A stretch of 64,000 bases of DNA from an uncultured Ignavibacteriales bacterium (lineage in GTDB: Bacteria > Bacteroidota > Ignavibacteria > Ignavibacteriales > Ignavibacteriaceae): assembly GCA_903929035.1 (NCBI GenBank), contig CAIYTF010000091.1, forward strand, positions 1-64,000, written 5' to 3'. Under the pieces are notes generated by a model, which saw only the letters and a list, made by a program, of their open reading frames with translations, was not told the origin of the DNA and did not search any database. Positions 28,605 through 49,123 of this stretch are shown in pieces. The first letter of the stretch is position 1, and every line of letters starts with the position of its first letter. A program made the translations under genes and the position numbers.

Positions 28605-28691
28605 AAGGGCTCGTTCGCAAATAACTTTATCACGCAAAGACCGCAAAGGGTTATATGTTGGAAGATGTAAAGGTTATTTCTTGACGAGTGC
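28605..28691. repeat. Dispersed intergenic element, family R1
   Basis: agggctcgttcgcaaataac...cacgcaaagaccgcaaagggttat...gttatttcttgacgagtgct; ends are imperfect inverted repeats (14/20 positions). Confidence 0.7.
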
Positions 28692-30769: not shown

Positions 30770-31654
30770 ATGTCCAAAACTCTGCATCGCCTGTATATCG
30801 GGCTGTTTGTTATTATAACACTTGGTTCACTATTTATGCTTATCCATTACGGTTGGAGTGACTATTATTCACTGTCACCTGATGACAAACCCTATTCATT
30901 GAAACACGAGACTCTCAATCCATCCGGTTATTGGGGACACGCCTACGGCATATTTGGCACGGTTATACTCATTATTGGAGTTGTAACTTATATGCTCCGT
31001 AAACGCGTTAAGTTCTTTTCGCGTATAGGATTCCTAAAACATTGGTTAGAATTTCACATTTTTCTTTGCACACTTGGTCCCCTTTTTGTTCTTTTCCACA
31101 CTGAGTTTAAATTCGGAGGTATTGTAGCTGTCAGTTTTTGGAGTATGACTGCCGTTGTACTTAGCGGTGTAATAGGAAGATTCATCTACGTGCAAATTCC
31201 CCGGAGTATTGAAGGCTCCGAACTGAGCAGCACGGACATTGATCTTCTTAATAAAGAGTTAGATGAAAAATTGGTTTCGAGCGGACACCTGACTCCGGAA
31301 CAAACGAAAAAAATTCAGTCGTTATTCCCGCGTGAAGCTGACTATGAACTTTCTTCTGTCGAAGCGTTATCTTTCTTTTTAAAAGATTTTTTCCTTTTAA
31401 AAAAATCATTAAATTTGATTTTGGTTCAAATCAGAACTTTTGGTATTACAGATGAATTACTTATCAAGAACACCATTCGTTCCGTAATTAAATCTAAACT
31501 TATCCTCAAAAGGAGGATTAAGCTGCTAAAGGCAATGCAGAAACTATTGCATCACTGGCATATTTTCCATCTGCCTTTTGCCATCGTTATGTTTATCATA
31601 ATGGTTATTCACGTGGTAGTTACTATAACATTCGGTTATCGCTGGATTTTTTAG
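30770..31654 (+). CDS. Membrane protein, possibly a b-type cytochrome
   Basis: 294 aa, about 4-5 TM segments with paired histidines (FLKHWLEFHIFL..LFHTEF; LLHHWHIFHLPFAIVMFIIMVIHVVV). Confidence 0.6.
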   Translation: MSKTLHRLYIGLFVIITLGSLFMLIHYGWSDYYSLSPDDKPYSLKHETLNPSGYWGHAYGIFGTVILIIGVVTYMLRKRVKFFSRIGFLKHWLEFHIFLCTLGPLFVLFHTEFKFGGIVAVSFWSMTAVVLSGVIGRFIYVQIPRSIEGSELSSTDIDLLNKELDEKLVSSGHLTPEQTKKIQSLFPREADYELSSVEALSFFLKDFFLLKKSLNLILVQIRTFGITDELLIKNTIRSVIKSKLILKRRIKLLKAMQKLLHHWHIFHLPFAIVMFIIMVIHVVVTITFGYRWIF

Positions 31655-31753
31655 GACTCGTTCAAAAATAACATTAACACTTTCTCACGCGAAGACGCAA
31701 AGACCGCAAAGGGTTATGTGTTGAAAGATGTAAATGTTATTTCTTTACAATGA
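31653..31753. repeat. Dispersed intergenic element, family R1
   Basis: aggactcgttcaaaaataacattaacactttctcacgcgaagacgcaaagaccgcaaagggttat...gttatttctttacaatga; left end overlaps the upstream gene's stop codon. Confidence 0.7.
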
Positions 31754-31851
31754 CTTAGTTAACTAAAATCCGCGTATTCTTTTCCTGCTCCGACTAATCA
31801 TCGGTGCAATGGGAATTTATTTATTCAATAAAATTAACAAAGTACTCTGAT

Positions 31852-33186
31852 ATGGATGATCTGTTAGGCACCGGTATTTATATTATTGCATTCGCGATAG
31901 CCGCTTTTGTGGTTTTGTGGTATATCCGCTCAGTGCGCAAACAAAACCGCGAAACAAAAAGTAAAATAGTAAAAGCGAAAGAATTTGGTCTCCACGAACC
32001 AATTACCCTGCACCCTGTTATTGACCAGGGAATGTGCATTGGAAGCGGTGCCTGCGTTGATGCCTGTCCCGAGAAAGATATTCTTGGAATAATCAACGGA
32101 CGTGTTGCAACTATTAACACTTCCAGATGTGTCGGGCACGGTGCCTGTTTCCACGCCTGCCCTGTCGAAGCAATTACACTTTGTATCGGTACTGAAAAAC
32201 GCGGCATCGATTTACCGCACGTGAATCAAGATTTTGAATCTAATGTTTCTATGCTATATATTGCAGGTGAACTTGGCGGTATGGGGCTTATTAAAAACTC
32301 CATCGAGCAAGGCAAATATGCCGTTGAAAACCTGACAAAAAAACTCAATAGAAATCTTGTTGCAGATTTTGATGTTATAATCATCGGGGCTGGACCTGCC
32401 GGATTCGCCGCTTCACTTGCAGCTCAGCAAAACAAACTTTCCTATCTGACTCTCGATCAGGACACGCTTGGCGGTACTGTATATCACTTCCCGCGCGCTA
32501 AAATCATTATGACTTCACCGGTTGATCTGCCTCTTCACGGGAAAGTAAAGTTGGTAGAAACTTCAAAAAAGGAACTCCTCGATTTATGGTCTGAAATTCG
32601 CGTTAAATTTAATCTTAATATTCGCGAACTTGAAAAAGTATTATCTGTCCGCAAAGAAAGTGATATTTTTCATCTCTCCAGCGTGAAACAAAACTACACG
32701 GCAAAAGCGATTGTTCTCGCGATTGGCAGAAGAGGAACACCGCGCAAACTTGGTGTCCCGGGCGAAGAAACTGAAAAGGTTTATTATAAACTTATAGAAC
32801 CGGAACTCTTAAAAGAACAAGACATTCTTGTTGTAGGCGGAGGGGATTCAGCTATTGAAACGGCTCTTCTACTCGCTGATGAAGGCAATAAAGTTACAAT
32901 CTCATATCGAAGCGATGCATTCGGCAGGCTGAAAGCAGGCAACCTTGATAAAATTTCAAAGGCTATAAAAAACAATGCCGTCAAGGTGCTATATTCCACA
33001 ACTGTTTCAGAAATCAAAGAGTCGGAAGTTATTCTCTCTGATAAATCCGGAAAAGCCGTCACGCTGCCAAACAACTTAGTATATGTGTTAATCGGCGGCG
33101 AACTCCCAAGCGAATTTATCCGCGATATCGGCATCTCAATAACCAAAAAGTTTGGCGAGGCTATTCTCTCCCATAAAAAGGATTAA
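31852..33186 (+). CDS. Membrane-anchored 4Fe-4S / FAD-dependent NAD(P) oxidoreductase
   Basis: N-terminal TM; two 4Fe-4S motifs (CIGSGACVDACP, CVGHGACFHACP); FAD motif VIIIGAGPAGFAASLAA; NAD(P) motif ILVVGGGDSAIETALLLADEG. ORF opens at 31804; ATG 31852 more likely. Confidence 0.85.
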   Translation: MDDLLGTGIYIIAFAIAAFVVLWYIRSVRKQNRETKSKIVKAKEFGLHEPITLHPVIDQGMCIGSGACVDACPEKDILGIINGRVATINTSRCVGHGACFHACPVEAITLCIGTEKRGIDLPHVNQDFESNVSMLYIAGELGGMGLIKNSIEQGKYAVENLTKKLNRNLVADFDVIIIGAGPAGFAASLAAQQNKLSYLTLDQDTLGGTVYHFPRAKIIMTSPVDLPLHGKVKLVETSKKELLDLWSEIRVKFNLNIRELEKVLSVRKESDIFHLSSVKQNYTAKAIVLAIGRRGTPRKLGVPGEETEKVYYKLIEPELLKEQDILVVGGGDSAIETALLLADEGNKVTISYRSDAFGRLKAGNLDKISKAIKNNAVKVLYSTTVSEIKESEVILSDKSGKAVTLPNNLVYVLIGGELPSEFIRDIGISITKKFGEAILSHKKD

Positions 33187-33251
33187 GAAAAGTGAATATA
33201 CTCCTATTGCATAATCAGCTTTTATCTCAATCATTTGGCAGAACTGACAGA

Positions 33252-34841
33252 ATGAAAATAGTTGTAACATTTCTCTTTTTGTTTAGTATAAATGTCTATA
33301 CGCAAATTTCCCCCGGTGATCTGGCTTCCCCTCACTCGAAACTTGAAGGCGTTTCTAATTGTACAAAGTGTCACGATCTCGGCAAAAAAGTATCTCCTGC
33401 TAAATGTTTGGAGTGTCACAAAGAGATTAAAAACCTGATTAATAATGGGAAAGGTTATCACGCTTCTTCTGAAGTAAAAAGCAAGGAGTGTATGCAGTGC
33501 CACAAAGATCACCACGGCAAAAATTTTAAATTGTTTCGTTTTGACCCTAATACATTTGATCATAAAAAAACAACTTTCGAGTTAACCGGCAAGCATACGG
33601 GAATGAAATGCACCGATTGCCATCAAGCCAAATATCTATCTGATTCAAAATATAAGAACAAGAAAGACACTTATCTTGGGCTTGGTACAAAATGCGTAAA
33701 CTGTCACGAAGATTATCACCAAAAAACTTTAAGCAGCGATTGCGGTTCTTGCCATTCAACAAAAGCATTCAAGCCTGTTGAGAAATTTGACCACAACAAG
33801 ACAAAGTATAAACTGACCGGAAAACATATTGGCGTTGAATGCTTCAAATGTCATACCAAAGAAACAAAAAATGATAAGGCATCGCAACAATTTACAGGGT
33901 TAGATTTTGACAATTGTTCGCCCTGCCACAAAGATGTGCATAATAATAAACTTGGTGATGACTGCAAAAAATGTCATAGCACCGGTGGATTCAATCTAAC
34001 TCCTTCATCATCAACAGGCTTTGATCATAACAAAACCAATTATCCGCTTTTGGAAAAGCATATTGATGTTAAATGTAAATCCTGCCATACCCCTGAGCGT
34101 GGTCTGAAACCAAAATTTGCTCTTTGCATTGATTGTCACAAAGACAAGCATAACGGACAGTTTAACGATAAAGCGGGAAAGCTGAAAGACTGCAAAACTT
34201 GTCATACGATACAGGGTTTTTCACCTTCGCTGTTTTCAATTGAAGAACACAGCAAGACTAAATATCAATTATCAGGGGCGCATCTTTCAGTTGCCTGCTC
34301 CAAGTGCCACAATAATGAGCAATCAAAAGACTGGACGTTCAAACCGATGGAAACCCGATGCATAAAATGCCATCATAATGTTCACGGCAGCGAAATTAGT
34401 GCTGCTTTTCTTGGCAAGGATGAATGTGAAAAATGTCACGGTGTTGCTTCTTGGAAAATTATTACATTCCAGCACGATTCAACAAAATTCAAACTATTAG
34501 GCAGTCACCTTAAAACAACCTGTAACAACTGTCATTATCCGGAAACATCAAAGGGTGATCACGTGTATAAATTTAAATCTCTAAATCAAGATTGCATATC
34601 CTGTCATAAAGATATTCACTTTGATCAATTTAGAGTCGGCGAAATTACTAACTGTAATCAATGCCACAACTTTGACAATTGGAAAGCAGTGAAATTTGAC
34701 CATAGCCGAACAGCTTTTCAGCTAAACGGTGTACACGCGAATGTCAACTGTAATAAATGCCATAAAGAAGTATTGAGCGCCTCAAGAAAATATATTTTAT
34801 ATAAAAATGGAAACATTAAATGCGCTGCCTGTCACAAATAG
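33252..34841 (+). CDS. Multiheme c-type cytochrome, 20 CxxCH motifs
   Basis: 20 CxxCH counted in the translation; signal peptide MKIVVTFLFLFSINVYTQ. ORF opens at 33192; ATG 33252 more likely. Confidence 0.9.
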   Translation: MKIVVTFLFLFSINVYTQISPGDLASPHSKLEGVSNCTKCHDLGKKVSPAKCLECHKEIKNLINNGKGYHASSEVKSKECMQCHKDHHGKNFKLFRFDPNTFDHKKTTFELTGKHTGMKCTDCHQAKYLSDSKYKNKKDTYLGLGTKCVNCHEDYHQKTLSSDCGSCHSTKAFKPVEKFDHNKTKYKLTGKHIGVECFKCHTKETKNDKASQQFTGLDFDNCSPCHKDVHNNKLGDDCKKCHSTGGFNLTPSSSTGFDHNKTNYPLLEKHIDVKCKSCHTPERGLKPKFALCIDCHKDKHNGQFNDKAGKLKDCKTCHTIQGFSPSLFSIEEHSKTKYQLSGAHLSVACSKCHNNEQSKDWTFKPMETRCIKCHHNVHGSEISAAFLGKDECEKCHGVASWKIITFQHDSTKFKLLGSHLKTTCNNCHYPETSKGDHVYKFKSLNQDCISCHKDIHFDQFRVGEITNCNQCHNFDNWKAVKFDHSRTAFQLNGVHANVNCNKCHKEVLSASRKYILYKNGNIKCAACHK

Positions 34842-37291
34842 CATTTATTATTTTTCTTTCATATTCTGCATTCGCGCAGTCTCCGCACGGGTCTGGTTTG
34901 TCGCTGGATTGCTCCGGATGCCACACTTCAACAAGTTGGAAAGTCAATCCGGCGAAAATATTTTTTAGTCACGCGAATACAAAATATGAGCTGACGGGAC
35001 AACATAAAAACGTTGACTGCAGGCAGTGTCACGTGTCGCTCGTGTTTTCTGATGCGAAAACCAATTGCATCGGATGCCATCGCGATATGCACAAAAACAG
35101 CGTGGGTACCGATTGCCAACGCTGCCACACAACAGAAAATTGGATTGTTAATAATACTAACTTATTGCATCAGTCAACGCGTTTCCCGCTTGTTGGGAAC
35201 CACGCGAAATCAGACTGCGGAAGCTGCCATACAGACTATAAACAATTGAATTTTTCAGTTAATGGAGTGACTTGTTACACCTGTCACACCGCCAACTATA
35301 ATTCGGCAAGAAACCCTAATCATATCGCTGCAAACTATTCAAGAAATTGCGATGAATGCCATCGTTCCTCCACACCAACCTGGCGGAGTTCTCAATTCAG
35401 ACACGATTCATTTCCTCTTGAACAAGGACATAAGATTGAAGATTGCTTCGCTTGTCATAAGTCCGGCGTTTTCACAGGGTTAAGTAAGGATTGCTATTCG
35501 TGTCACAATGATAAGTTTTCTGCAACGTCAAACCCTAATCATATTACTGCAAAGTTTAGTACAAATTGTTCCGAATGTCACGCGCCAACTGTTTGGACTG
35601 AATCTAAGTTTAATCATAATCTCACCACGTTTCCTTTGACCGGAAAACACACGGCAGTATCCTGCATTGAATGCCATAAAAACGGCAATTACTCGAGCAT
35701 ATCCAAAGAATGTAAATCGTGTCACGATGGTGCAGCAGCAGCGGTGGTTACTGTTAATCATAAGTTAGGAAATTTTTCACAAGTTTGCACTGACTGCCAT
35801 ACAACCTCCGCTTGGAAGCCTTCTTCATTTACTCACGATGCAACTCCATTTCCATTGACCGGCTTACATATTACTCAATTGTGTAATAGATGCCACACTG
35901 CTGTTTACTCCGGCACATCAAAAGAATGCAAGACCTGCCATCTTGCGGCAATGAACGCGGCCACTAATCCTGATCATAAAATCAGTAATTTCCCGCAAGT
36001 GTGTACAACGTGCCACACGACTACTGTTTGGAAACCGTCATCATTTAATCACGGTGCAACTGCATTCCCGCTGACGGGTGCTCACGTGACTCAGTTTTGC
36101 AATAAATGTCACGCGACACAATTTGCAGGAACAAAAACTGACTGCTATTCGTGCCATCAAGCTGCATATACAAGCGCGGTAAATCCTAACCACGTTACTG
36201 GAGGTTATCCAAAAGATTGCGTTCAATGCCACAACAGCAATGCTTGGAAACCTGCAACATTTAATCATAATGCAACCGCGTTCCCGTTAACAGGTGCGCA
36301 TCAAACAACAGAGTGCATAAAATGTCACGCTGCCGGATATACCGGAACCACGAAAGATTGCAAGACCTGCCACCTAACGGCAATGAATGCCGCGACAAAT
36401 CCAGATCATAAAGTCACAAATTTCCCGCAAGTGTGTACCGCCTGCCACACTACAAGCGATTGGAAATTTGATCACGGTACAGGAACTTCGGTTGATTGTT
36501 ACTCTTGTCATCAACCGGCATACGTAAATTCAACAAATCCAAATCACGTTGCGGGCGGATACCCGACTACTTGCAAAACTTGTCATACAACAACGGCTTG
36601 GATTCCATCAAACTTTAATCACACCGCTACCGGATTTACAATTGACGGCGGACATACAACCGTGACTTGCGGGCAGTGTCATCCCGGAAACATCACGCGC
36701 GTTGACCCTGCTTGCAAAACTTGTCATACACCTAAATATACTGCCACGACAAATCCGTCACATACAGCTTTGTCGATTTCGTTAGACTGCGTGACTTGCC
36801 ATACAACCGTGAAAGGCTGGATACCTGCACTTTTTCCTAACCACGCGGCATATTTCGCGTTTGCCGGAGCACATATTGCTATTGCAAGTAATTGCGCTTC
36901 CTGTCATAATGGTTCTTATCCGGTGCAGACCGCGAGAGTTTGCGATAATTGCCACTCGGTAAAATATAACGCTACCACGAATCCACCTCATTCTTTAGTT
37001 GCTTATTCCAGAACTTGTACTTCCTGCCATACTCAAACAGCTTGGACACCCGCGCCAACTTACGTACACCCAACATATAGCTATACAGTAAAGCACAGTT
37101 CAAAAAAATGTAACGAGTGCCATACGACTAATACAGCAGGCTATGTCCCTCAATGTATTAGTTGTCATCAATCTGATTTCAATGAAGAACATAAATCAAG
37201 CGCAAGAAAAGACTGCTGGGCATCAGGCTGCCATACAAACCCTAAGAATTTTGATCACAGACCTGCACGCGCAAAAATTAGGATAGATTAA
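34820..37291 (+). CDS. Large multiheme c-type cytochrome, 32 CxxCH plus one CX4CH
   Basis: 32 CxxCH counted plus CWASGCH near the C-terminus; signal peptide MRCLSQIAFIIFLSYSAFAQ; overlaps upstream ORF by 22 nt. Confidence 0.9.
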   Translation: MRCLSQIAFIIFLSYSAFAQSPHGSGLSLDCSGCHTSTSWKVNPAKIFFSHANTKYELTGQHKNVDCRQCHVSLVFSDAKTNCIGCHRDMHKNSVGTDCQRCHTTENWIVNNTNLLHQSTRFPLVGNHAKSDCGSCHTDYKQLNFSVNGVTCYTCHTANYNSARNPNHIAANYSRNCDECHRSSTPTWRSSQFRHDSFPLEQGHKIEDCFACHKSGVFTGLSKDCYSCHNDKFSATSNPNHITAKFSTNCSECHAPTVWTESKFNHNLTTFPLTGKHTAVSCIECHKNGNYSSISKECKSCHDGAAAAVVTVNHKLGNFSQVCTDCHTTSAWKPSSFTHDATPFPLTGLHITQLCNRCHTAVYSGTSKECKTCHLAAMNAATNPDHKISNFPQVCTTCHTTTVWKPSSFNHGATAFPLTGAHVTQFCNKCHATQFAGTKTDCYSCHQAAYTSAVNPNHVTGGYPKDCVQCHNSNAWKPATFNHNATAFPLTGAHQTTECIKCHAAGYTGTTKDCKTCHLTAMNAATNPDHKVTNFPQVCTACHTTSDWKFDHGTGTSVDCYSCHQPAYVNSTNPNHVAGGYPTTCKTCHTTTAWIPSNFNHTATGFTIDGGHTTVTCGQCHPGNITRVDPACKTCHTPKYTATTNPSHTALSISLDCVTCHTTVKGWIPALFPNHAAYFAFAGAHIAIASNCASCHNGSYPVQTARVCDNCHSVKYNATTNPPHSLVAYSRTCTSCHTQTAWTPAPTYVHPTYSYTVKHSSKKCNECHTTNTAGYVPQCISCHQSDFNEEHKSSARKDCWASGCHTNPKNFDHRPARAKIRID

Positions 37292-37294
37292 CTT

Positions 37295-38908
37295 ATGAAG
37301 ATGTATTTTTGGGTGGGTTTGTTTTTTTGGGGAACTGCATTCGCGCAGTCTCCGCACGGTGCTAATTTTTTGATGGATTGCTCCGGCTGCCATACTGCAA
37401 CGAGTTGGACTGTCAATCCCTCGAAAATATTTTTTAGTCACTACAATACAAAATATTACCTAACAGGGCAGCATATAAATGTTGCCTGCAAGCAGTGCCA
37501 TACATCAATGGTATTTTCAGAAGCTAAAACCAATTGTGCAGGATGCCATCGCGATATGCACAAAAACAGCGTAGGTACAGATTGCCAACGCTGCCACACA
37601 ACAGAAAATTGGATAGTAAATAAAACTAACTTATTACATCAGTCAACGCGTTTCCCGCTTGTTGGTATCCACGCTAAAACTGATTGCGGCAGCTGCCATA
37701 GCGGATATAAAGAACTTAACTTTGCAGTACAGGAAGTTACTTGTTATTCTTGCCACTCAGCTGCCTACATTGCTGCCAAGCTCCCAAATCATATCGAGTC
37801 CAATTTTTCAAAAGATTGTGATCAGTGTCATCGTTCTTCTGCTTCATCGTGGATAGAAGCCCAATTCAGACACGAACAATTTCAAGGAGTTGCCTGCAAC
37901 ACCTGTCATTCTGCCAACTATGCAGGTACCACGAACCCTAATCACGCCGCGAGCAATTATCCTAAAAATTGCAGCCCTTGCCATAGCACCACCGCTTGGA
38001 AACCTGCAACACTTGATCATAGCCTCACTCAATTTCCACTGACAGGTGTACATCTATCAACATCCTGCGAAAAATGTCACGTGAATAATGTTTACTCGGG
38101 CACATCTGTTGACTGTTACGCGTGCCATCAGACAGCTTATTCGAATGCTACAAACCCAAATCATATATCTGCAGGATACCCGACAAACTGCAAAACTTGC
38201 CACACGACAACCGCGTGGGTTCCATCAAACTTTAATCATACAGCCACCGGATTTACACTTGAAGGCGGACATACAACTGTCGCTTGCGCCCAGTGCCACT
38301 CGGGAACTATAGGGCACATTGACCCTGCTTGTAAAACTTGTCATACACCAAAATATACTGCCACGACAAATCCGTCACATACAGCTTTGTCGATTTCGTT
38401 AGACTGCGCGACTTGCCATACAACCGTGAAAGGCTGGAAGCCTGCACAATTTCCTAACCACGCGGCATATTTCGCGTTTGCCGGAGCGCATATTGCTATT
38501 GCAAATAATTGTGCTTCCTGTCATAACGGTTCTTATCCGGTGCAGACCGCGAGAGTTTGCGATAATTGCCACTCGGCAAAATTTAACGCTACCACGATCC
38601 CGCCGCATTCGTTAGTTGCTTATTCCCGAACTTGCACTATATGCCACACGCAAACCGCTTGGACTCCCGCGCCAACATACGCCCATCCAACTTATAACTA
38701 TAAAGTAAAGCATAGTTCAAAAAAATGTAACGAGTGCCATACAACCAATACCGCCGGATATGTGCCCCAATGTATTAGTTGTCATCAATCTGATTTCAAT
38801 GAAGAACATAAATCAAGTGCAAGAAAAGACTGCTGGGCATCAGGCTGCCATACAAGCCCTAATAATTTTGATCACAGACCGGTACGCGCTAAAATTAGGA
38901 TAGACTAA
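37295..38908 (+). CDS. Multiheme c-type cytochrome, 20 CxxCH plus one CX4CH (paralogue of previous)
   Basis: N- and C-terminal regions nearly identical to the 34820-37291 product; CWASGCH conserved; signal peptide MKMYFWVGLFFWGTAFAQ. Confidence 0.9.
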   Translation: MKMYFWVGLFFWGTAFAQSPHGANFLMDCSGCHTATSWTVNPSKIFFSHYNTKYYLTGQHINVACKQCHTSMVFSEAKTNCAGCHRDMHKNSVGTDCQRCHTTENWIVNKTNLLHQSTRFPLVGIHAKTDCGSCHSGYKELNFAVQEVTCYSCHSAAYIAAKLPNHIESNFSKDCDQCHRSSASSWIEAQFRHEQFQGVACNTCHSANYAGTTNPNHAASNYPKNCSPCHSTTAWKPATLDHSLTQFPLTGVHLSTSCEKCHVNNVYSGTSVDCYACHQTAYSNATNPNHISAGYPTNCKTCHTTTAWVPSNFNHTATGFTLEGGHTTVACAQCHSGTIGHIDPACKTCHTPKYTATTNPSHTALSISLDCATCHTTVKGWKPAQFPNHAAYFAFAGAHIAIANNCASCHNGSYPVQTARVCDNCHSAKFNATTIPPHSLVAYSRTCTICHTQTAWTPAPTYAHPTYNYKVKHSSKKCNECHTTNTAGYVPQCISCHQSDFNEEHKSSARKDCWASGCHTSPNNFDHRPVRAKIRID

Positions 38909-38912
38909 CTTT

Positions 38913-40511
38913 ATGAAGATATTTTTTTTATTATTTCTGTTCTTTTTAGCAAATATGTATGCTCAAGAACTGCCAAAAATTCGTACAGTAGGAACTATTT
39001 CTTATGTTTCGAGCCAATATTACTATGTTCAGTTTGATAACACGGAAGGGTTTTCAGCAGGTGACACATTATTTATTACGACAGAAATAAACACCGTTCC
39101 TGCTCTGCGGATTAAATTTATTTCCACGCGCTCGGCAGCTTGCGAGAAAATTTCCGGAATGACTATCCCGATGAAGAAAGGAACTGATTTGTTTGGGTAT
39201 AGGAAGCAAATAGCGCAAGAAGTTCAGCCGGATGATAAAACGGCAGTTGCTTCAACTAATACTGATATTTCAGGAAAAAATAAATTACCAAAAGTTATTG
39301 ATGACAACTTGAAAATAACAGGCAGGTTATCACTCCTTTCTGCAAGTGACTTTGCGTCTGCTTCTTCGTTTAATAGCCAGAGGTGGAGAAGCTCTATCAA
39401 CTTTACAGTGGAAAATTTTATTGTCCCGCGGCTTTCTTTATGTGACTATATGATTTATTCATATTCTGACAAAGACAGGCAATCCATCAAATCAGACCCT
39501 TTCAAGAACCTGAAAATTTATGATCTTGCTTTGCTATATAAACCCTCTCCTGAACTCTCTCTATGGCTTGGAAGACACCTCAATTATCGTATGGCAAATG
39601 CAGGTACTATTGACGGGCTTCAGCTTGAACGTACTGCAAAACCTTTTTTCTATGGATTCTTTGCCGGTTCGCATCCTTCTTTTACCGATTATGGATTTGA
39701 TTTGAACCAGTTTCAATTTGGCGGTTACATTGCCCGTGTTGACTCTTTTGGCAATAATGCTAATATGGAAAACACCGCGGCTTTTTTCAATCAAACAGTA
39801 AAACTAAAAACAGACCGCCGTTTCATTTATTTGCAGCATTCCGATAGTTTCCTCAAGGATATGGATATTTTAGTTTCTTCCGAACTAGATTTGTTTAAGA
39901 TTGAAAACAGCCAATCTATGAACACGCTTTCATTAACAAGTTTGTATAGTTCGCTGCGCTATACATTTACCCGCGACTTAAATGCTTCGATTTCCTATGA
40001 TGCGCGTAAAAATGTTGTTTATTATGAATCTTTCAAGACATACTTGGATAGTTTATTTTCAAACGAATTGTTGAAAGGACTGCGGTGGAATATTTCATAT
40101 CGTCCTTTCAATACAATGTCTATCGGGCTAAACGGCGGATTGCAATCACAGAAAAGCGATCCTAAACTTTCTCAAAACTACGGCAGTTATATGTATATTT
40201 CAGATTTGCCCATAATCCAATCAGATGCTAATATATCGGGAACATACCTTTCCGGATCATATATTAAAGGAATTACTGCCGGTGCGGAATTATCTAAACG
40301 CGTAACTGATAATCTATATCCATCTATAGGTTATCGATTTTTTTACTACAAGTATCAGTCAATTGCTGAAAGTATGACACAGCACGTTGTATTCTCCAAC
40401 ATATCTTTCACCATCTCACGCGATATTCAAATATCGCTATACTACGAAGGAACTATAGATAATTCAGGCAGTGCTAACCGAATATATATCGATTGCTCAA
40501 CACGGTTCTAA
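38913..40511 (+). CDS. Predicted outer-membrane beta-barrel protein (porin-like)
   Basis: 532 aa; signal peptide MKIFFLLFLFFLANMYAQ; alternating aromatic/polar strands (LSLWLGRHLNYRMANAG, GYRFFYYKYQS, ISLYYEGTIDNSG), C-terminal F; 4 nt after the third cytochrome gene. Confidence 0.6.
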   Translation: MKIFFLLFLFFLANMYAQELPKIRTVGTISYVSSQYYYVQFDNTEGFSAGDTLFITTEINTVPALRIKFISTRSAACEKISGMTIPMKKGTDLFGYRKQIAQEVQPDDKTAVASTNTDISGKNKLPKVIDDNLKITGRLSLLSASDFASASSFNSQRWRSSINFTVENFIVPRLSLCDYMIYSYSDKDRQSIKSDPFKNLKIYDLALLYKPSPELSLWLGRHLNYRMANAGTIDGLQLERTAKPFFYGFFAGSHPSFTDYGFDLNQFQFGGYIARVDSFGNNANMENTAAFFNQTVKLKTDRRFIYLQHSDSFLKDMDILVSSELDLFKIENSQSMNTLSLTSLYSSLRYTFTRDLNASISYDARKNVVYYESFKTYLDSLFSNELLKGLRWNISYRPFNTMSIGLNGGLQSQKSDPKLSQNYGSYMYISDLPIIQSDANISGTYLSGSYIKGITAGAELSKRVTDNLYPSIGYRFFYYKYQSIAESMTQHVVFSNISFTISRDIQISLYYEGTIDNSGSANRIYIDCSTRF

Positions 40512-48651: not shown

Positions 48652-49107
48652 ATGGATAGCAGCTTAATACTTTTCCGGATAGACCAATTCAATTGTGCCC
48701 TGCCAATTGAATATGACCCGTATTGCTTTCGTGCTGTCAAGATTCAATCCATCCCGATTGATGTGCCTTTCTTTCAGGGCACGGTTGATTTTCACGGCAG
48801 TAATATTCCGGTTTTTAATCTCAGGAAAAAATTTTCACTTCCTGCCAAAGATTTAAACCCGCGGCAAACAATGATAAAATTGAGAACTCGTCAAAATTAT
48901 ATAATTATCATCGCGGATACAGTTGCCGGATTCACGCGGGTTATGCAGGAAGAGATTAATCCAATAACCGGAGTGAACGATACAGCACTGCCTTTTGCGG
49001 CGTCTTTTTTCCGCGAAAATGAAAAATATTTACTGCTAAATTTTAATATTCTTATCGATGGCGAGGACCTTATAGCCATTGATTCAATATACTCTAACGT
49101 CAATTAA
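48652..49107 (+). CDS. CheW-like coupling protein
   Basis: LILFRIDQFNCALPIEYDPYCFRAVKIQSIPIDVPFFQGTVDFHGSNIPVFNLRKKF..MIKLRTRQNYIIIIADTVAGFTRV. Confidence 0.8.
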   Translation: MDSSLILFRIDQFNCALPIEYDPYCFRAVKIQSIPIDVPFFQGTVDFHGSNIPVFNLRKKFSLPAKDLNPRQTMIKLRTRQNYIIIIADTVAGFTRVMQEEINPITGVNDTALPFAASFFRENEKYLLLNFNILIDGEDLIAIDSIYSNVN

Positions 49108-49123
49108 CACTTTGAGCATCCAA

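What the first reader, a model, noticed from the sequence alone, without database searches (positions are those of the whole stretch)
30770..40511. Candidate extracellular electron-transfer conduit: membrane b-cytochrome, Fe-S/FAD reductase, three multiheme cytochromes, outer-membrane barrel
Seen: six consecutive same-strand genes; the three cytochromes contain 20, 32 and 20 CxxCH motifs (72 total) plus two CX4CH, followed within 4 nt by a predicted outer-membrane barrel. Knowledge: porin-cytochrome systems couple multihemes to a barrel; inner-membrane quinol or NAD(P)H oxidation feeds them. Inference: electrons pass from NAD(P)H/ferredoxin via the FAD/Fe-S protein and b-type protein to periplasmic or surface heme wires. 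The architecture does not obviously match Mtr or Geobacter PCC.
Basis: partly seen in the sequence, partly recalled or inferred. Interest (0 to 1): 0.75.

Follow-up and report, generated by a model that had tools for sequence, protein, structure and literature searches.

The report
Bacteroidota NAD(P)H-linked outward heme wire
This gene set probably builds an electrical cable across a bacterium's cell wall, running from an enzyme inside the cell through a fixed 20-heme link to an outer-membrane pore and a variable-length outer heme chain; it recurs across the Bacteroidota and is a variant of a poorly studied, untested class of extracellular electron conduit.

Summary
Observation confirmed: six co-directional genes at 30770-40511; 20, 32 and 20 CxxCH plus two CX4CH; a 22-stranded barrel in a confident AlphaFold2 model. 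The unit is conserved: 20 of 41 related genomes carry reductase, 20-heme cytochrome and intact barrel together, 20 carry none, one keeps only a truncated b-cytochrome and a barrel remnant. It also occurs in Bacteroidales, in divergent lineages with the reductase gene moved, and on an Emticicia plasmid. The architecture matches the PCC3 type proposed in 2017 for Proteobacteria (porin, long outer and ~21-heme inner cytochromes, inner-membrane protein with two WX3HX13H motifs and SGXXG). It adds a membrane-anchored NAD(P)/FAD plus Fe-S reductase. New here: the inner cytochrome has 20 hemes in 64 of 71 complete copies, while the outer one ranges from 10 to 88, almost always 3n+1 (84 of 91); its size changed at least 34 times on the barrel tree, the remainder mod 3 only twice. 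Best reading: NAD(P)H to FAD/Fe-S, to diheme b, to a fixed periplasmic wire, to barrel plus variable surface wire, mainly outward. Direction, substrate and localisation are inferred. The window copy has two outer cytochromes, each apparently one heme short of the rule.

The parts
30770..31654 (+). Inner-membrane diheme b-type protein (IMP), 294 aa; two WX3HX13H motifs (aa 92-110 and 263-281) and SGXXG (aa 132-136)
   Evidence: 63 of 64 distinct homologues keep both WX3HX13H and SGXXG; W92, H96, H110, W263, H267, H281, S132, G133, G136 conserved >95%; the same signature is given for PCC3/PCC4 IMPs (PMC5566968)
31655..31803 (.). Intergenic 149 bp holding a dispersed genomic repeat (core ACGCAAAGACCGCAAAGG at 31695-31712), where several Ignavibacteriales relatives carry a TPR-protein gene
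   Evidence: 13 copies in the genome at <=1 mismatch; TPR gene in L024, L026, L028, L033 etc.
31804..33186 (+). Membrane-anchored reductase: N-terminal TM helix, two Fe-S motifs (CX2[S/T]X2CX3CP and CX2HX2CX3CP), YpdA/TrxR-like FAD and NAD(P) domain without CxxC; probable start 31852
   Evidence: Pfam/NCBIfam, PDB sequence match to YpdA 7a7b/7a76 at 1e-28, motif conservation in 73 homologues
33192..34841 (+). cytA: signal peptide plus 20-heme c-type cytochrome; candidate periplasmic wire; probable start 33252
   Evidence: 20 CxxCH; 20 in 64 of 71 complete homologues; length 533 +/- 10 aa
34820..37291 (+). cytB: signal peptide plus 32 CxxCH and 1 CX4CH; repeated ~72-aa triheme modules; candidate outer or surface wire; overlaps cytA by 22 bp
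   Evidence: TIGR04257 nanowire_3heme domain 63.5 bits (cut-off 40), six stretches
35348..37015 (+). Triheme repeat stretch of cytB (aa 177-732); the module at aa 539-584 has only two hemes
   Evidence: module segmentation and spacing 32/15-16/25 aa
37295..38908 (+). cytC: second copy of the outer cytochrome, 20 CxxCH and 1 CX4CH; one heme appears lost near aa 175-201
   Evidence: DNA 87% identical to cytB over the last 810 bp and 78% over ~550 bp near the start; TIGR04257 44.9 bits
38913..40511 (+). Outer-membrane protein: signal peptide, small N-terminal beta domain, flexible linker, 22-stranded barrel, C-terminal Phe
   Evidence: AlphaFold2 pLDDT 87.4; profile found in 35 of 396 sampled genomes of the phylum; no Pfam/NCBIfam/PDB sequence family

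Best explanation
A dedicated extracellular electron conduit of PCC3-like architecture with its own cytoplasmic reductase. A membrane-anchored flavoprotein takes electrons from NAD(P)H (possibly ferredoxin) and passes them through two cysteine-poor Fe-S centres to a two-heme b-type membrane protein that works like the core of an NADPH oxidase or ferric reductase. On the periplasmic side electrons enter cytA, a 20-heme wire of fixed length that may bridge the periplasm, then the 22-stranded barrel together with cytB/cytC, whose triheme modules make an outer wire of freely variable length. Most likely direction is outward, disposing of reducing equivalents onto minerals, humics, electrodes or partner cells. 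Shown: gene content, motifs, barrel prediction, co-conservation, heme-number regularities. Inferred: cofactor occupancy, localisation, order, direction, substrate.
For: Reductase, 20-heme cytochrome and intact barrel occur in exactly the same 20 of 41 related genomes; adjacency is conserved in nearly all contigs long enough to show it. In divergent lineages the content persists although the reductase gene lies behind the barrel, so the grouping is not mere inheritance of a fixed order. Own genome has no MtrB, no second locus with cytB-like cytochromes, but has c-type cytochrome assembly genes. The IMP carries the PCC3/PCC4 diheme signature. The reductase has FAD/NAD(P) folds, no disulfide CxxC, Fe-S motifs, and an N-out/C-in TM helix by charge. 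cytA is nearly invariant at 20 hemes while cytB varies 10-88. Signal peptides by inspection on cytochromes and barrel.
Against: No experiment or expression data. The cytA model is poor (pLDDT 73, pTM 0.36, no PDB match), so the wire shape is untested. The barrel's fold matches are generic (TM <= 0.41), and no complex was modelled. The quinone pool rather than NAD(P)H may feed the b protein. A few loci lack a detectable IMP next to the cluster (L070, L078, L091, L114). Emticicia, which carries the set on a plasmid, is aerobic to my knowledge, which does not fit a purely anaerobic sink.
Confidence: 0.66

Rival explanations
1. Same conduit, opposite direction: electron uptake from Fe(II), minerals, electrodes or partner cells into the quinone pool, as first proposed for PCC3 in iron oxidisers.
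For: PCC3 was proposed in Fe(II) oxidisers with flow to quinones (PMC5566968); Emticicia plasmid copy; multiheme conduits may run both ways (PMC10734462).
Against: Near-universal pairing with an NAD(P)/FAD/Fe-S reductase: reducing NAD(P)+ with electrons from outside would be uphill in potential and against the membrane potential (established bioenergetics, inference). Prolixibacter strains carrying it give no support for uptake: nitrate-dependent iron corrosion by the genus is attributed to nitrite, and P. bellariivorans, which also carries the cluster (L084), does not respire nitrate (PMC8368055).
Confidence: 0.18
2. Quinol-fed outward conduit: the b-type protein oxidises menaquinol as in CbcL-like systems and the flavoprotein is a regulatory or secondary electron entry.
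For: IMP resembles quinone-active cytochrome b subunits (argument of PMC5566968).
Against: The reductase is as conserved as the cytochromes and stays linked even when the operon is rearranged.
Confidence: 0.11
3. Surface or periplasmic electron capacitor, or reductive detoxification (metalloids, oxidants), rather than a respiratory or fermentative electron sink.
For: Weak sub-threshold similarity of cytA to selenite/tellurite operon proteins ExtN/ExtO (far below cut-offs); plasmid location in Emticicia.
Against: No metalloid resistance genes were seen as constant neighbours of the unit, though most unlabelled neighbours were not identified; the barrel is always paired with the cytochromes.
Confidence: 0.04
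4. The barrel is an ordinary transporter or secretion pore and the cytochromes serve a soluble periplasmic pathway.
For: Best PDB fold matches are ushers and porins, all weak.
Against: Barrel co-occurs one-to-one with the cytochromes and reductase and is not found intact elsewhere among 41 genomes.
Confidence: 0.01

Closest known systems
PCC3 porin-cytochrome complex (He et al. 2017, PMC5566968; Gallionellaceae survey PMC10734462)
   Same: Porin, long outer cytochrome (median 34 hemes) and inner cytochrome (median 21), ~300-aa IMP with SGXXG and two WX3HX13H; 22-39 residues per heme (here 24.9-27.5); outer cytochrome highly variable.
   Different: Described from Alpha-, Beta- and Gammaproteobacteria; the named components are four, with no NAD(P)/FAD/Fe-S reductase. 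Here the inner cytochrome is 20 (rarely 23) rather than 21/24/27, and the outer follows 3n+1, unlike the 10-18 at nearly every value reported for Gallionellaceae. Homology of porin and cytochromes to PCC3 could not be tested.
PCC4 (He et al. 2017, PMC5566968)
   Same: IMP motifs; an additional Fe-S redox protein in one subgroup.
   Different: PCC4 has no extracellular cytochrome and three periplasmic ones; its Fe-S protein is Pfam PF13247, not a pyridine nucleotide flavoprotein.
Mtr/Mto/Pio
   Same: Barrel plus multiheme cytochromes.
   Different: No MtrB_PioB match; 20-heme instead of decaheme inner cytochrome; different inner-membrane entry.
Geobacter Pcc (OmbB-OmaB-OmcB), also reported in Ignavibacterium album (PMC4245776)
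   Same: Barrel, inner and outer cytochromes; 18-22 predicted strands versus 22 here.
   Different: Inner cytochromes have 5-14 hemes (I. album 14), outer 1-15 typical motifs; no IMP/reductase pair in the core described there.
NADPH oxidase / ferric reductase membrane module (works like, not member)
   Same: Cytoplasmic flavin plus two transmembrane b hemes on HX13H helices moving electrons outward.
   Different: No PF01794 match; flavoprotein is a separate YpdA/TrxR-type protein with Fe-S motifs; the acceptor would be a heme wire.

Membership tests
PCC3 | Outer-membrane beta-barrel gene in the cluster | tested here: met
   AlphaFold2 22-strand barrel, pLDDT 87
PCC3 | Two multihemes with very many hemes, ~21 inner and median 34 outer | tested here: met
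   20 and 33 (plus 21) motifs; relatives 20 and 10-88
PCC3 | 22-39 residues per heme | tested here: met
   27.5, 24.9, 25.6
PCC3 | ~300-aa IMP with SGXXG and two WX3HX13H | tested here: met
   Exact in window and 63 of 64 homologues
PCC3 | Five TM helices in the IMP | tested here: inconclusive
   Simple hydropathy finds four clear regions; the segment with the first His pair stays below the threshold
PCC3 | Sequence homology of porin and cytochromes to PCC3 of Sideroxydans/Leptothrix | not testable with these tools
   No PCC3 reference sequences could be reached; plasmid tblastn found none
Mtr/Mto/Pio | MtrB_PioB barrel (PF11854) | tested here: not met
   No match of the barrel at E<=0.1; none in the genome
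Mtr/Mto/Pio | Decaheme inner cytochrome (DmsE family TIGR03508 over cut-off) | tested here: not met
   46.6 bits versus cut-off 192.2; 20 hemes
Geobacter-type Pcc | Inner cytochrome with 5-14 hemes | tested here: not met
   20 hemes, conserved; range from PMC4245776
Geobacter-type Pcc | OmbB-homologous porin | not testable with these tools
   No Pfam/NCBIfam family hit the barrel and no OmbB sequence was available
c7-type triheme (TIGR04257) repeat cytochromes | Domain score over curated cut-off | tested here: met
   cytB 63.5 and cytC 44.9 bits versus 40; cytA 22.2, below
NADPH oxidase / ferric reductase | PF01794 ferric reductase domain | tested here: not met
   No Pfam family at E<=0.1, though two HX13H pairs are present

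The most novel reading that the evidence does not exclude
A phylum-wide, NAD(P)H-fed, quinone-independent extracellular electron system in Bacteroidota: an NADPH-oxidase-like inner-membrane module wired to the outside, in which a 20-heme cytochrome is a fixed ruler for the periplasm and the outer wire grows and shrinks in triheme units.
Probability: 0.35. Interest if true: 0.8.

Novelty: new variant of a known kind. Interest (0 to 1): 0.6.

Why it matters
It extends the untested PCC3-like type to Ignavibacteriales, Bacteroidales and Cytophagales, including culturable genera such as Prolixibacter, Labilibaculum, Draconibacterium, Maribellus and Emticicia, where a mechanism can be tested. It proposes a direct NAD(P)H entry into a heme wire. 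The contrast between an almost invariant 20-heme component and one whose size changes in threes gives a natural experiment on which part of an electron conduit is constrained by cell geometry.

Tried and rejected
MtrB/Pio membership: rejected. Geobacter Pcc by heme number: rejected. AlphaFold2 of cytA: low confidence, fold search uninformative. PDB sequence search for the barrel: nothing. Barrel fold search: only generic barrels, TM<=0.41. Iron corrosion by Prolixibacter as functional support: rejected, attributed to nitrite. Literature on Prolixibacter or Emticicia multihemes: none found. Chance as an explanation of CxxCH density: rejected.
Full report
What is there. Six genes on the + strand, 30770-40511, encode a b-type inner-membrane protein (IMP), a reductase with Fe-S, FAD and NAD(P) domains, three multiheme cytochromes (here cytA, cytB, cytC) with 20, 32 and 20 CxxCH (one CX4CH each in cytB and cytC), and a barrel. 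Shuffled versions of the cytochromes hold at most 4 motifs. cytA and cytB overlap by 22 bp and the next two gaps are 3 and 4 bp. The relatives brought in are mainly Ignavibacteriales and Bacteroidales; the only same-genus genome in the set (G001) corresponds to an uncultured Ignavibacteriales bin (L046), so the window most likely comes from an Ignavibacteriaceae-type genome.

Barrel. With 60 sequences AlphaFold2 gives mean pLDDT 87.4: signal helix, a small N-terminal beta domain (residues 22-98), a low-confidence linker and 22 strands. Foldseek finds only generic large barrels, usher FimD first, TM at most 0.49 on the shorter target and 0.41 on the query, and no Pfam, NCBIfam or PDB sequence family matches. 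An idealised 22-strand barrel has a backbone radius of about 20 A (geometry only), which leaves room for a slim cytochrome but does not show that one is inside.

Conservation. Among 41 genomes, the barrel (intact), the reductase and cytA are each found in the same 20 and absent from 20 others. The remaining genome, G013, has a truncated IMP beside a remnant of the barrel's C-terminus on contiguous sequence without gaps: a natural loss of the path between them. Across 80 loci from named genomes the order IMP-[TPR]-reductase-cytA-cytB-barrel is kept nearly wherever the contig reaches far enough; exceptions without a detectable IMP are L070, L078, L091 and L114. Of 396 genomes sampled over the phylum, 35 have a barrel match. 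In most of the more divergent ones the reductase gene lies after the barrel, yet the same components are present in nearly all loci. Emticicia oligotrophica carries IMP, reductase, 23-heme and 40-heme cytochromes and barrel, preceded by a cytochrome c biogenesis gene, on plasmid pEMTOL02.

Heme numbers. cytA has 20 hemes in 64 of 71 complete copies, those 64 being 533 +/- 10 aa long. cytB-type proteins run from 10 to 88 hemes; counting CX2-4CH, 84 of 91 are 1 mod 3 (naive binomial 4e-32, which ignores relatedness). On a tree of the barrels, cytB heme number changes at least 34 times among 43 loci with one copy, its remainder mod 3 twice. The window protein shows why: the repeat is a 72-73-aa module with three hemes spaced 32, 15-16 and 25 residues, and cytB matches the c7 triheme family TIGR04257. 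Module gain and loss is therefore the unit of change. That long multihemes gain or lose heme-bearing segments has been noted for Burkholderiales and Chloroflexi (PMC7399161); the strict triheme step and the contrast with a fixed cytA are, to my knowledge, new. In the window cytB (33) and cytC (21) break the rule because each seems to have lost one heme in one module (cytB aa 539-584, cytC aa 175-225). cytC is a duplicate of cytB: 87% identical DNA over the last 810 bp. Second outer cytochromes occur in other loci too, for example L045, L067, L079, L108.

Inner-membrane side. The IMP has two WX3HX13H motifs and SGXXG, as have 63 of 64 homologues, exactly the signature given for PCC3 and PCC4 IMPs, argued there to bind two b hemes as in ferric reductases and NADPH oxidases (PMC5566968). 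The reductase has one N-terminal TM helix preceded by acidic and followed by basic residues, so its cofactor domains should be cytoplasmic (inference). Its flavin part matches YpdA and thioredoxin reductases but has no CxxC in any of 73 homologues. Its two Fe-S motifs lack the usual second cysteine: that position is Ser/Thr in 70 of 73 in the first motif and His in all 73 in the second. These could be [3Fe-4S] or unusually ligated [4Fe-4S] centres; this is untested.

Mechanism. The parsimonious path is NAD(P)H, FAD, Fe-S, two b hemes, cytA, barrel with cytB/cytC, exterior. I prefer the outward direction because a pyridine nucleotide reductase is a near-constant partner, and inward reduction of NAD(P)+ would be uphill in potential and against the membrane potential (inference). 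The fixed 20 hemes of cytA fit a component confined between two membranes; 10-heme MtrA is about 104 A long (PMC4245776), so 20 hemes could reach about 200 A (extrapolation). Spanning of the periplasm was already suggested for PCC3 inner cytochromes (PMC10734462). The outer cytochrome is free to vary. The attempt to model cytA gave a low-confidence result and decides nothing.

Comparison. The best match is PCC3. The features of PCC3 that I could test conclusively are met, but homology to PCC3 proteins could not be tested, and the reductase is an addition not listed for PCC3. I therefore call it a PCC3-like variant, not a proven member. Earlier hints exist: unassigned PCC genes in Bacteroidetes bins of a humic bog (PMC6344600), and a seven-gene cytochrome and barrel cluster in an anode-enriched Bacteroidetes bin, described with six cytochromes and so probably different (PMC8258643). 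The Pcc of Ignavibacterium album has a 14-heme inner cytochrome and is a different cluster.

Noticed in passing
L124 6602-8756, L125 5258-8612, L126 5309-8663: Plasmids of Bradyrhizobium, Sphingomonas/Sphingobium and Methylophaga carry a 2Fe-2S protein, a membrane protein with two HX13H pairs and a class III cytochrome (7 hemes in L124 and L125), without a barrel; in Sphingomonas and Methylophaga near heavy-metal or copper genes. Possibly a simpler relative of the same inner-membrane module.
   Followed up: partly
L123 (Emticicia oligotrophica plasmid pEMTOL02) 6646-18444: Whole conduit operon on a plasmid together with a cytochrome c biogenesis gene ccsA.
   Followed up: partly
31695-31712 and 28632-28649: Dispersed repeat with core ACGCAAAGACCGCAAAGG, 13 copies in the genome at <=1 mismatch, one inside the operon.
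   Followed up: partly
L118 and L029: Outer cytochromes with 88 hemes (L118) and 58 hemes (L029); 88 exceeds the 85 that He et al. 2017 called the largest then known.
   Followed up: no
L040 8014-9136: Natural deletion joining a truncated IMP to the barrel's C-terminal remnant, removing reductase and cytochromes.
   Followed up: partly
L056, L059, L062: cytA appears split or shortened into pieces with 5+14, 10+8 and 11 hemes; frameshift, assembly error or real split not resolved.
   Followed up: no
50860-53462: C-5 cytosine DNA methylase followed with overlap by a 438-aa protein with no Pfam match, possibly its restriction partner.
   Followed up: no
49079-61269: Chemosensory cluster: CheR, MCP, CheA hybrid, CheB and a response regulator-histidine kinase.
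   Followed up: no
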